Part shown: positions 37,301 through 39,715 of the stretch, in pieces | How positions within the stretch are numbered: position 1 is the first letter of the stretch | Layout: the number at the start of each line of letters is the position of its first letter | DNA from: Stichopus chloronotus | Taxonomy: Eukaryota > Echinodermata > Holothuroidea > Aspidochirotida > Stichopodidae | Assembly (NCBI GenBank): GCA_021234535.1 | Contig: CM037839.1 | Span: 25,965,196-26,029,195, forward strand | DNA: 64,000 nt | Direction: 5' to 3' | Translations under genes and position numbers: made by a program | The notes under the pieces: generated by a model | What the model saw: only the letters and a program-made list of their open reading frames with translations | Database searches by the model: none | What the model was told of the DNA's origin: nothing

Positions 37301-38670
37301 TCTCCTATTTAACCAGCACATTCTGTCTACAATTTAGAAATGATGTAGTTTCCATAGTAGTTACTTGCATCGGATATACCCAGTGTAATTATTAGTGATA
37401 TGAATCATGTTTGTGTAACACAATTCAATTCAGAAAGTCTGCTAGTGAGATTCAGTGTGTTATATGTTTGTCAGTAAACCCTGGGTCGCACTAGCGCGAT
37501 TCAACGCATGGTTCAACTTTCAACTAAAATTAAAAGTTGTTTGGTATAGCATAGCATCACAATTTCTTTCAATACTGGTTGTCTGGAATAGGTGAAGTGA
37601 TCTTGAGTCAATATTTCTGCATTTGTTAATTTAATTGGCAAGTCAGGTTGTGCAATTTTTGTTGAAATTTGAATTGCGTGTTGAATCACGCTAGTGTGAC
37701 CTTGGGTTAAAGAGATAGAAACACTGATCTGCCAAGTGCGTTTGAGTTCCTCTTTGATTCATATCAGTAATGCATGGAACTGCTCATCCACTGAGATTGG
37801 TTTTGATATATCATGATATTACATATATACAAATGGGATAAGAGATATGTTAAATTCACTGTGTTTTTCAGGGATAAAGTAATCTACCAAGTGATTTATG
37901 ATTGCCTCCAGTCACTCAAAGATCTAAACAATCAGTAGACATTTCATTTAGCCACCTAGAGATCTAGAGATTGGGTAAATGTTGCTCCCAGCCTTTTAGA
38001 GATGAAGAGGTTGGGTAGAGATGTAGCAGACATTGCTCTCAGTCACTCAGAAACTGAGAGCATCAGTAGACATTGGTTTCTTGTCACTCAAAGATCTAGA
38101 GAGGCAGTAGACACTGCTCTACTGCCATCCAGATATTTAGGTTTTTAGTTGACATTGCTCTCCGCCTCTGAGAATTAGCAATTCACCAGACGTTAATCTC
38201 CGTCACTCAGAGGTCTAGAAATGAAGAATTATTAATCTTCATAGTGTTTGTGAAAAAAAATTCTTTAACTTGTGTTTCAACAGTATGTACAAACTTTATC
38301 TTTGAGATGTGGTCTTTGAGATGTGGTCTGCTACATGTGTATAAATACGATAAATACATTCAGTAAGTATGGTTGTGTAATATAAATCAATGTGCATGTT
38401 TAAAATGTGTTAAAGTTATGTCAAAGTTTTTGTGAGATATTTGTTTCTTGTGCATGAATAACAAATTAAAAAAATATTAAACATTGTTTATTCATTTCTG
38501 TAACAGGATTTACCCCACCGAGTGTGTCTGAGATATGGTCAGTTTGTGTTCGATTAGCATCCTCCAAGCTGTTGCTGCTGGAAGCTGGTTTCAGCGAGAT
38601 CAGTAAAGGAATTCTTCTTAACGTGAGTCAGGACGATGTCAGGTTTGCTCTCAGCCAATCAGAAATTTAG
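19315..38670 (+). CDS. ORC1: Origin recognition complex subunit 1 (ORC1), 14 exons
   Basis: Exons: 19315-19391, 21930-22039, 23251-23435, 24100-24388, 26927-27756 (3' end uncertain), 28044-28138, 29804-29905, 30528-30699, 31225-31332, 32404-32553, 33526-33645, 35163-35417, 37127-37163 and 38507-38670. Phases agree at every junction, giving 2,694 nt (897 residues; human 861). An in-frame TGA at 19285-19287 makes 19315 the first in-frame ATG. Domains: BAH about 30-175; charged disordered linker about 180-530; AAA+ ATPase about 535-750 with Walker A GVPGTGKT (569-576), Walker B LIVDE (652-656), sensor 1 Asn689, arginine-finger motif RVSSR (701-705) and sensor 2 GDARR (752-756); then the winged helix, ending SQDDVRFAL. 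ORC1 is the ATP-binding subunit that licenses replication origins with ORC2-6 and CDC6. The exon 5 donor (ACG|GTTTGT) is weak; other in-phase donors would change the linker by a few residues. Confidence 0.96.
19635..20585 (-). mobile_element. Internally deleted LTR retrotransposon in ORC1 intron 1
   Basis: Two direct repeats, 19635-19868 and 20369-20585, both start TG and end CA on the + strand. They share CTCCAAAGAAGACACAACTG, ACTTGTTTGCA, GCCACAACTCTGCATGTAT and GGAATGCCCAAACA. They flank about 500 bp. On the - strand, just before the repeat at 19868, a short frame-broken stretch reads like the C-terminal end of a Ty3/gypsy integrase, ending in AHLDQLK followed by a stop. That position, directly ahead of the 3' LTR, fits - strand orientation. 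Gag, protease and reverse transcriptase are missing. I found no matching target duplications. Confidence 0.7.
21930..24388 (+). other. ORC1: ORC1 BAH-domain exons 2-4
   Basis: Exons 21930-22039, 23251-23435 and 24100-24388 carry the bromo-adjacent homology domain that binds nucleosomes. Landmarks are NTGDTVLID, VVTWYFRKSE, NIDAETIIG and FYFVRW. The cage tryptophan (in TWYF) and the acidic residue six positions later are kept. The human motif WYDY is LFDR here. Exon 4 runs on into a KTPGKKQDEEEEEDEGG acidic stretch that starts the linker. Confidence 0.88.
22960..23110 (-). repeat. Dispersed repeat family A, copy 2
   Basis: Reverse-strand copy of the 870-1030 sequence, in ORC1 intron 2. It lies within about 150 bp of the exon 3 acceptor but does not overlap it. 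Confidence 0.68.
28962..29035. repeat. Short tandem repeat, 18-bp unit
   Basis: CTAGAAAAACCTCAAG or CTGGAAAAACCTCAAG is repeated about four times in ORC1 intron 6. Units differ by one or two bases. Confidence 0.85.
33960..34110 (+). mobile_element. 3' remnant of a LINE-type reverse transcriptase
   Basis: On the + strand one frame reads KAWNALPVSIKTAASLQVF followed by a histidine/leucine stretch and a stop. An AWN-LP...S...F..HL ending is typical of the C-terminal tail of reverse transcriptases in LINE-type (non-LTR) elements. Upstream sequence back to about 33760 may belong to it, but its frame is broken. It lies in ORC1 intron 11. No catalytic part is present. Confidence 0.55.
35769..36327. 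mobile_element. TTAA-flanked MITE in ORC1 intron 12
   Basis: Terminal inverted repeats: the left end is AGGTCGGGTGACATG, starting at 35769. The reverse complement of the right end is AGGTCTGGTGACATG. TTAA lies directly outside both ends (35765-35768 and 36328-36331), the signature of piggyBac-type insertion. The element is 559 bp with no transposase. A related fragment is at 17405-17650. Confidence 0.87.
36500..36790. repeat. Degenerate tandem repeat, about 40-50 bp
   Basis: In ORC1 intron 12. Variants of GTATCAGAGAATGGTATTGCACCATA recur about six times, for example near 36605, 36640, 36700, 36728 and 36762, with irregular spacing. It looks like an old decayed minisatellite. Confidence 0.5.
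37478..37707. mobile_element. Short MITE with TAA duplication in ORC1 intron 13
   Basis: The left end reads ACCCTGGGTCGCACTAGCGC. The reverse complement of the right end reads ACCCAAGGTCACACTAGCGT. The similarity runs on through GATTCAACGC/GATTCAACACGC. TAA flanks both ends (37475-37477 and 37708-37710). It is 230 bp with no coding capacity. The ends are unlike those of the 6517-7365 element, so this is a separate family. Confidence 0.85.
37890..38240. repeat. Degenerate minisatellite in ORC1 intron 13, upstream of the last exon
   Basis: Decayed copies of the unit found at 38671-39715: AGTAGACATT, TTGCTCTCAGTCACTCAG and AGAGATCTAGAG recur about eight times with spacing of 40-50 bp. The copies are much more diverged than those downstream of the gene. 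Confidence 0.78.
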
Positions 38671-39715
38671 TAGACCTTGTCTCCAGCAATGCAGAGATTC
38701 ACCAGTTGCTCAGAGATCCAGGTTATATTGTAAACATTGGAGTCAGTCTCTCCTCAGAGATCTGATGCCGACATAGACATTGCTCTCAATCACTCAGGAT
38801 ATCTACTGATTGAGCAGACATTGCTCTCAATCACTCAGATCTACTGATTGAGTAGACATTGCTCCCAGTCACTCAGATCTACTGATTGAGTAGACATTGC
38901 TCTCAATCACTTAGAGGATCTACTGATAGCGTAGACATTGCTCTCAATCACTCAGATCTACTGATTGAGTAGACAGTGCTCCCAGTCACTCAGATCTACT
39001 GATTGAGTAGACATTGCTCTCAATCACTTAGAGGATCTACTGATAGAGTAGACATTGCTCTCAATCACTCAGATCTACTGATTGAGTAGACATTGCTCCC
39101 AGTCACTCAGATCTACTGATTGAATAGACATTGCTCTCAATCACTTAGAGGATCTACTGATTGAGTAGACATTGCTCTCAATCACTTAGAGGATCTACTG
39201 ATAGAGTAGACATTGCTCTCAATCACTCAGATCTACTGATTGAGTAGACATTGCTCCCAGTCACTCAGATCTACTGATTGAATAGACATTGCTCTCAATC
39301 ACTTAGAGGATCTACTGATAGAGTAGACATTGCTCACAATCACTCGGGATCTACTGATTGGGTAGACATTGCTCTCAATCACTCAGATCTACTGATTGGG
39401 TAGACATTGCTCTCAATCACTCAGGATATCTACTGATTGAGCAAACATTGCTCTCAATCACTGAGAGGATCTACTGATGAGGTATACATTGCTCTCAATC
39501 ACTCAGATCTACTGATTGGGTAGACATTGCTCTCAATCACTCAGGATATCTACTGATTGAGCAGACATTGCTCTCAATCACTGAGAGGATCTACTGATGA
39601 GGTAGACATTGCTCTCAATCACTCAGATCTACTGGTGAGGTAGACATTGAGAGCCAGAGATCTTCTGATTGAGTAGACATTGCTGTCAGTCACTCAGAGG
39701 CCTATAGATTTGGTA
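38671..39715. repeat. Minisatellite in the ORC1 3' untranslated or flanking region
   Basis: About 25 units of 36-42 bp built from GTAGACATTGCTCTCAATCA, CTCAG and ATCTACTGATTGA. Sub-types (CTCTCAATCACTCAG, CTCCCAGTCACTCAG, CTCTCAATCACTTAGAGG) alternate. The CTCCCAG type recurs at 38871, 38978, 39095 and 39253, so groups of three units form a higher-order repeat of about 107-117 bp. The array starts at the stop codon. The last ORC1 codons themselves match the unit. Confidence 0.95.

What the first reader, a model, noticed from the sequence alone, without database searches (positions are those of the whole stretch)
37890..39715. Minisatellite flanks and appears to include the last ORC1 codons and stop
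The coding end of ORC1 reads TTGCTCTCAGCCAATCAGAA then ATTTAGTAGAC. The minisatellite unit reads TTGCTCTCAATCACTCAG...TAGTAGAC or GAGTAGACATT, and a copy in intron 13 (TTGCTCTCAGTCACTCAGAA) is closer still. Repeat copies lie on both sides of the 164-bp last exon. The final eight or so codons (about FALSQSEI) may therefore be a captured repeat unit, or the array may have grown from the end of the gene. The conserved ORC1 sequence stops just before this point (SQDDV), so the tail was free to change. Downstream copies are far more uniform than intronic ones, so the array has been expanding in the 3' direction.
Basis: partly seen in the sequence, partly recalled or inferred. Interest (0 to 1): 0.8.

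Follow-up and report, generated by a model that had tools for sequence, protein, structure and literature searches.

The report
Minisatellite seeded by ORC1 gene end
In a sea cucumber genome, a repeat array beside the ORC1 gene matches the gene's last codons and stop, and relatives share those codons, so the gene end most likely gave rise to the repeats rather than being made from them.

Summary
From 38645 (second base of the Phe codon TTT) to just past the stop, the end of ORC1 aligns to a whole repeat unit, 30 of 35 bases with one 8-base gap. It scores 17.8; the best of 10,390 other window stretches scores 11.4. Eight old copies lie in the last intron, three irregular ones follow the stop, then 22 near-uniform ones.

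The captured-repeat reading fails. The window is a sea cucumber. Its tail SQDDVRFALSQSEI is nearly the same in Apostichopus japonicus (FALSQSES) and Holothuria leucospilota (FALSQQES). [FY]-A-[LM] stands there in 118 of 120 listed ORC1 homologs, so conservation does not stop at SQDDV. The genome searches that ran found the tandem unit only at this locus.

Best reading: a minisatellite seeded by tandem duplication of ORC1's last codons, stop and first 3' bases between two TTG triplets. Later amplification was internal, not 3'-ward: both edges are degenerate. How copies reached the intron is unresolved. Whether relatives carry the array, and whether intron-type copies lie elsewhere, could not be tested. 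Kind: ordinary minisatellite; unusual only in its visible coding seed.

The parts
37127..37163 (+). Penultimate ORC1 coding exon (VLKQHVSLCRIQ)
   Evidence: splice sites read in the sequence; the peptide joined with its neighbours aligns to solved ORC1 chains (the best ones are human, recalled)
37902..38225 (+). Eight old, degenerate copies of the unit in the last intron (33-51 bp each)
   Evidence: nhmmer E down to 1.1e-7 against a profile of downstream units; nearest edit distances 9-21
38507..38670 (+). Last ORC1 coding exon, 164 bp, stop TAG at 38668-38670
   Evidence: Cdc6_C winged-helix domain PF09079 in the joined C-terminal peptide
38645..38679 (+). Proposed seed ('unit 0'): TTGCTCTCAGCCAATCAGAAATTTAGTAGACC plus the following TTG, i.e. 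most of the codons for FALSQSEI, the stop and the first 3' bases
   Evidence: 30 of 35 identities with one 8-base gap to the whole unit; 17.8 against at most 11.4 in 10,390 other stretches; profile hit E 0.0054, but E 0.11 with a profile of derived units
38677..38779 (+). Three irregular copies right after the stop (starts 38677, 38706, 38737; each begins with TTG), linking the gene end to the array
   Evidence: weak, singly not significant profile hits 38703-38721 and 38752-38778, 38703-38763; phase read from the sequence
38780..39646 (+). 22 near-uniform 38-41 bp units with two internal higher-order blocks (117 bp x4, with one extra unit, and 120 bp x2); 8 of 22 hold a perfect 8-bp inverted repeat CTCAATCA/TGATTGAG
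39647..39745 (+). Degenerate 3' edge of the array; the 39680 unit is of the old type shared with the intron copies
   Evidence: (families D7, D8)

Best explanation
A minisatellite private to this locus and seeded by the end of ORC1. Step 1 (inferred): a stretch running from the middle of the Phe codon (TTG of TTTGCTCTC) through Ala, Leu and the 5-residue tail, the stop and about 6 bases of 3' flank was duplicated in tandem, probably by slippage or repair between the two TTG triplets that flank it. This makes the junction GTAGACA|TTGCTCTC that defines the later units. Step 2 (shown as a pattern): units gained about 8 bases and drifted into an old type, now seen in the intron and at the 3' edge, with irregular copies just after the stop. 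Step 3 (shown as a pattern, cause inferred): inside the 3' part, a derived 38-41 bp unit was amplified recently in higher-order blocks; many of these units can form a hairpin. The gene kept the seed because those codons encode the conserved end of the ORC1 winged-helix region. No function is needed for the array. Since no AATAAA or ATTAAA lies between the stop and 40239, it is probably transcribed in the 3' untranslated region (inferred).
For: Gene-end similarity beyond chance and covering a full unit from TTG to TTG. Similarity begins inside conserved codons, with nothing significant upstream. The final residues are nearly the same in A. japonicus and H. leucospilota. [FY]A[LM] is present in 118 of 120 listed homologs (of 4,206 found): 117 by script, plus P0021, which the script's pattern missed; exceptions P0003 (frameshifted model) and P0024 (divergent end). 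The stop is 5 residues after A-L in the sea cucumbers, 3 named sea urchins and 3 starfish. Two A. japonicus protein models in different frames, if from like alleles, fix the DNA there as TTTGCTCTCAGCCAATCAGAGAGTTAG followed by YMGNCAY, compatible at every base with the unit's TAGTAGACAT. In the genome 16 of 16 exact and 7 of 8 one-mismatch matches to a 19-base piece lie here. None of the 30 off-locus matches lies in a 38-41 bp array, and their flanks score at most 16.0 against 21.5-60.0 for the 24 matches at the locus. First poly(A)-signal-like hexamer at 40239.
Against: No genome of a relative could be read, so it is unknown whether the array is younger than the shared codons. The strength of the gene-end match depends on the profile: E 0.11 and 0.56, E 0.0054. 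The two TTG triplets are only 3 bp. The intron copies lie upstream of the proposed seed, and no convincing relic of a duplicated exon was found there. No unit carries recognisable sequence from upstream of TTG, which would have proved direction. The gene tail lacks about 8 bases present in the units, so an insertion must be assumed. Tail length is not fixed in ORC1 at large: 2 to 22 residues after A-L in 117 homologs, 3 being commonest (66) and 5 found in 13; the two crinoids have 2 and 5. One off-locus match (L033) lies in a 126-bp tandem array whose units share about 17 bases with ours. Intron-type copies were not searched genome-wide.
Confidence: 0.68

Rival explanations
1. Captured repeat: an array unit was pasted over the gene end and now encodes FALSQSEI.
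For: The match covers a full unit including the stop. The sea cucumber tail S-Q-x-E differs from the sea urchin and starfish tails, so capture in a sea cucumber ancestor is formally possible.
Against: F/Y-A-L is older than sea cucumbers, and the 5-residue tail is shared with the sea urchins and starfish examined. A. japonicus and H. leucospilota have nearly the same tail. No other tandem source of the unit was found in the genome.
Confidence: 0.06
2. Chance: the ORC1 end and the array are unrelated and happen to look alike.
For: The profile hit is only 13.0 bits, E 0.0054 over the window; the best of 200 shuffles came to 12.1. With other profiles the gene end has E 0.11 and 0.56.
Against: The best hit in the window is also the place next to the array, on the same strand and in unit phase, followed by irregular units. 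The full-unit alignment scores 17.8 against at most 11.4.
Confidence: 0.1
3. Concerted evolution: the array arose next to the gene independently and gene conversion has since made the gene end and the units alike.
For: Units are homogenised within the array. Seven codons in a row, AGG to TCA, are identical between window and deduced A. japonicus DNA, while 9 of the 26 codons for shared residues in the last 30 differ (counted by eye from the strings).
Against: Identical runs of 5 and 7 codons are not unusual at that rate. A. japonicus shows the same bases. The protein tail has not been overwritten.
Confidence: 0.1
4. The units belong to a dispersed repeat or transposon that inserted twice at this locus.
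For: Copies lie on both sides of an exon. 30 off-locus partial matches against 9 for the reversed control pattern. One of them, L033, lies in a 126-bp tandem array with about 17 shared bases per unit; in L018 the flanks look unit-like (16.0, reached by 0 of 300 shuffles) through a local 20-bp duplication seen by eye.
Against: All 30 off-locus matches were fetched. Flanks reach the 5% level in 2 of 30, about what chance gives, and all score below the 24 locus units. The DNA search of window 38500-38900 found only this locus.
Confidence: 0.05

Closest known systems
Single-locus minisatellites (tandem units of 10-100 bp)
   Same: Head-to-tail 38-41 bp units, higher-order variant blocks, degenerate edges and a homogenised interior.
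   Different: A likely seed is still visible, and it is the coding end and stop of a conserved gene. The origin of minisatellites is described as very difficult to study (PMC3389668, Introduction read).
Transposon-derived minisatellites (PMC3389668: 23% of human minisatellites/satellites; passages and Introduction read)
   Same: A pre-existing sequence acts as seed and is expanded by local duplication.
   Different: Here the seed is a host gene end, and the searches that ran found no dispersed copies of the unit.
VNTRs just 3' of genes, such as the HRAS1 VNTR (recalled, from no call)
   Same: Array beside or in the 3' end of a gene.
   Different: As far as I recall, no unit there is derived from the coding tail.

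Membership tests
Minisatellite | Head-to-tail units of 10-100 bp | tested here: met
   Periods 38 (and 79, 117), scores about 1200; 22 units of 38-41 bp listed
Minisatellite | Array length varies between individuals | not testable with these tools
   One assembly only
Single-locus tandem repeat | Unit absent elsewhere in the genome | tested here: met
   16 of 16 exact matches at the locus; of 30 off-locus matches none lies in a 38-41 bp array; DNA search only here. Limits: the tool's counts are lower bounds, it skips common words, and the intron-type copies were not searched.
Initiation at direct repeats of 5-10 bp flanking the seed (model described in PMC3389668) | 5-10 bp direct repeats at the ends of the seed | tested here: not met
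   Only TTG (3 bp) is shared by the two ends (read)
Slippage at non-contiguous repeats (other model in PMC3389668) | Incomplete terminal unit | tested here: inconclusive
   Edge units are irregular: 29, 31 and 43 bp after the stop; 33, 40 and 26 bp at the 3' edge; decay could do the same
Transposon-derived tandem repeat | Unit similar to a dispersed element | tested here: not met
   No dispersed copies of the unit found; no transposon library was searched
Captured repeat at a gene end | Tail specific to the lineage that carries the array | tested here: not met
   Tail nearly the same in A. japonicus and H. leucospilota; whether these have the array is unknown

The most novel reading that the evidence does not exclude
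The stop-bearing end of an essential replication gene is a live member of its own minisatellite: gene and array exchange sequence by slippage and conversion, so array dynamics can rewrite the last residues, the stop and the start of the 3' untranslated region of ORC1 in this sea cucumber lineage.
Probability: 0.1. Interest if true: 0.55.

Novelty: new member of a known kind. Interest (0 to 1): 0.3.

Why it matters
How a minisatellite begins is hard to study (PMC3389668), as the seed is often no longer recognisable (my inference). Here the likely seed is held in place by protein conservation, so first duplication, drift of the old units and late amplification can be read as layers at one locus and dated with other sea cucumber genomes. 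It also warns against reading repeat-like gene ends as captured repeats: the gene can be the parent.

Tried and rejected
Exon-relic idea: a tandem duplication of last exon plus array would explain the intron copies, but no convincing relic of the exon lies upstream of 37902. The best blastn match (E 0.009, 36 bases, 72%) involves intron spacer, not exon; nhmmer of the exon finds only itself below E 0.37; the best tblastn hit in the intron (E 0.055) lies on the other strand.

Upstream-flank idea: intron unit 38033 is preceded by GATGTAGCAGACA, resembling the gene's GATGTCAGGT. If real, it would favour the gene-to-array direction, but 58% of 500 shuffles do as well.

Unusual DNA conservation of the tail between window and A. 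japonicus was considered and dropped: the identical run is not unusual at the observed rate (by eye on the string; the comparison printed is offset by six bases and was not used).

Hairpins: central units have longer perfect stems (mean 6.5) than intron units (4.1) or the gene tail and its three flank units (2.3). The copies are not independent, so this is a hint only.

Off-locus matches: I first took all 30 as plain isolated 19-mers. On rechecking, L033 lies in a 126-bp tandem array (3.3 copies) that shares about 17 bases per unit with ours, L019 beside a 20-bp tandem array, and L018 has a local 20-bp duplication (by eye). None carries the 38-41 bp unit.

Rfam found nothing at gathering scores. 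A 19-base piece was absent from viral contigs; one exact match in a Paenibacillus contig was taken as chance and not examined. Paper searches listed no paper whose title or shown abstract describes a minisatellite at ORC1 or in sea cucumbers. Only listings were seen, except PMC3389668 (passages and Introduction) and PMC10336381 (passages).
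Full report
What the window is. A search with the ORC1 peptide joined from the window's exons returned 4,206 proteins, of which the best 120 were listed. The top ones are Apostichopus japonicus (92% identity over the searched AAA+ part) and Holothuria leucospilota (88%), then sea urchins, starfish and crinoids at 66-70%. In a core comparison the window has 308 of 333 residues in common with A. 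japonicus and 294 of 333 with H. leucospilota; these two share 311 of 339. Its assembly is held: 718,950,351 bases in 267 contigs, window at C11:25965196-26029195.

The observation. The last coding exon is 38507-38670, 164 bp. Tandem units of 38-41 bp fill 38774-39698. Old copies lie in the last intron at 37902-38225. How well the gene end matches depends on the profile. A profile of derived units gives it E 0.11, and the intron stretch as query E 0.56. A profile of 17 units of all types, trained without 38640-38779, gives its best hit in the rest of the window at 38645-38671, E 0.0054 on both strands, and its next two, not significant, at 38752 and 38703. None of 200 shuffles reached that score; the highest was 12.1 against 13.0. 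Aligned with one long gap allowed, 38645-38679 matches the whole unit from TTG to the next TTG: 30 identities of 35, score 17.8; 10,390 other stretches reach at most 11.4. Upstream of TTG there is no significant similarity. Units starting with TTG follow without a break at 38645, 38677, 38706, 38737 and 38780; the three in the middle are irregular and on their own not significant. I conclude that the gene end and the array are related.

Which came first. The window's ORC1 ends NVSQDDVRFALSQSEI. A. japonicus ends NVSQDDVRFALSQSES and H. leucospilota NVSQDDVRFALSQQES; sea urchins end RYALDSRTK or similar, starfish YALRDHSE, YALRDHGE or YALKEHGE. One residue, then F or Y, A, and L or M, follows the SxDD motif in 118 of 120 listed homologs: 117 by script, plus P0021, which my pattern missed. 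The two exceptions are P0003, a frameshifted A. japonicus model, and P0024, an Amphiura model with another end. The stop stands 5 residues after A-L in the sea cucumbers and in the named sea urchins and starfish; over 117 homologs the length runs from 2 to 22, and the two crinoids have 2 and 5. H. leucospilota belongs to Holothuriida (recalled). Apostichopus is placed in Synallactida, within Neoholothuriida, a clade of Permo-Triassic age whose sister group is Holothuriida (PMC10336381, passages). The repeat-like codons are thus old and were kept by descent. They were not pasted in from the array in this lineage.

A useful accident. P0003 reads the A. japonicus gene end in another frame than P0001. 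If both come from like alleles, the two models fix the DNA as TTTGCTCTCAGCCAATCAGAGAGTTAG followed by YMGNCAY and then a stop in the second frame. This holds TTGCTCTCAG and is compatible at every base with TAGTAGACAT after the stop; the next triplet (TRR) no longer continues into the unit's TTGC. So the gene end of A. japonicus resembles the unit too, also past the stop. It does not say whether A. japonicus has the array.

Is the unit found elsewhere? A DNA search of the genome with window 38500-38900 found nine places, all at this locus. The pattern GACATTGCTCTCARTCACT with up to 2 mismatches gave 54 matches: 16 of 16 exact, 7 of 8 one-mismatch and 1 of 30 two-mismatch matches are here, which leaves 30 elsewhere, against 9 for the reversed control pattern. 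All 30 were fetched. None lies in an array of 38-41 bp. Flanks were scored against the unit: 2 of 30 reach the 5% level of shuffles, about what chance gives; the highest, L018, scores 16.0 (0 of 300 shuffles) through a local 20-bp duplication, and the 24 matches at the ORC1 locus score 21.5 to 60.0. L033 lies in a 126-bp tandem array that shares about 17 bases per unit with ours; I take this as a chance motif but cannot exclude more. The tool warns that its counts are lower bounds and that it skips common words. The intron-type copies were not searched genome-wide, because that request did not complete.

How it grew. The central 22 units are nearly identical to others (nearest edit distance 0-3), while the intron units differ by 9-21 and the 3' edge units by 8-13. 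The variant order MNOPNQRNSTRNSRUVWXVMYZ shows two internal higher-order blocks, 117 bp four times (with one extra unit) and 120 bp twice. Both edges are old. This is internal amplification, not growth at the 3' end. Eight of the 22 central units carry a perfect 8-bp inverted repeat, which the gene tail lacks; it may have helped slippage (inference). No AATAAA or ATTAAA lies between the stop and 40239, so the array is probably within the 3' untranslated region (inference).

Mechanism proposed. The unit begins at the TTG inside the conserved Phe-Ala codons and ends before the TTG that follows the stop. A tandem duplication between these two TTG triplets gives the unit's own junction ACA|TTGCTC. 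This is inference. Reviewed models call for slippage at non-contiguous repeats, or for 5-10 bp direct repeats (PMC3389668, Introduction); only 3 bp are seen here. The intron copies remain unexplained. No convincing relic of a second last exon was found. Older template switching or reinsertion of array DNA are possibilities without evidence.

Verdict. Confirmed observation. Of the two readings offered, the gene end is the likely source and not the product. The claimed 3' polarity is not supported. The thing is an ordinary minisatellite in kind, of some interest because its likely seed is still visible and is coding.

Noticed in passing
10350-10698 and 60762-60952: Two further minisatellites with 55-bp units (6.3 copies, 93% matches; 3.5 copies, 95%) and different consensus units.
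   Followed up: no
10983-11243 (-): A PRP38-family exon (PF03371, E 7.7e-10) upstream of ORC1 on the other strand, with an SR-rich ORF at 5998-6345 (-). PRPF38A and ORC1 are also neighbours in human (recalled), so this may be an old gene pair.
   Followed up: partly
23157-24417 (+): ORC1 N-terminal exons resembling the N-terminal end of A. japonicus P0001 by eye; the typed peptide gave no Pfam hit. The gene therefore seems to start well upstream of the 26878 ORF.
   Followed up: partly
16929-17110: A (TCTA)n microsatellite of about 46 copies.
   Followed up: no
54342-54959: A 327-bp direct duplication, 86% matches.
   Followed up: no
L033 (G000:C13:28240890-28241520), 84-498: A 126-bp tandem array, 3.3 copies, whose units share about 17 bases with the ORC1 unit.
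   Followed up: partly
P0003 (A. japonicus protein model): Frameshifted in its last exon relative to P0001; the frame change made it possible to deduce the DNA.
   Followed up: yes
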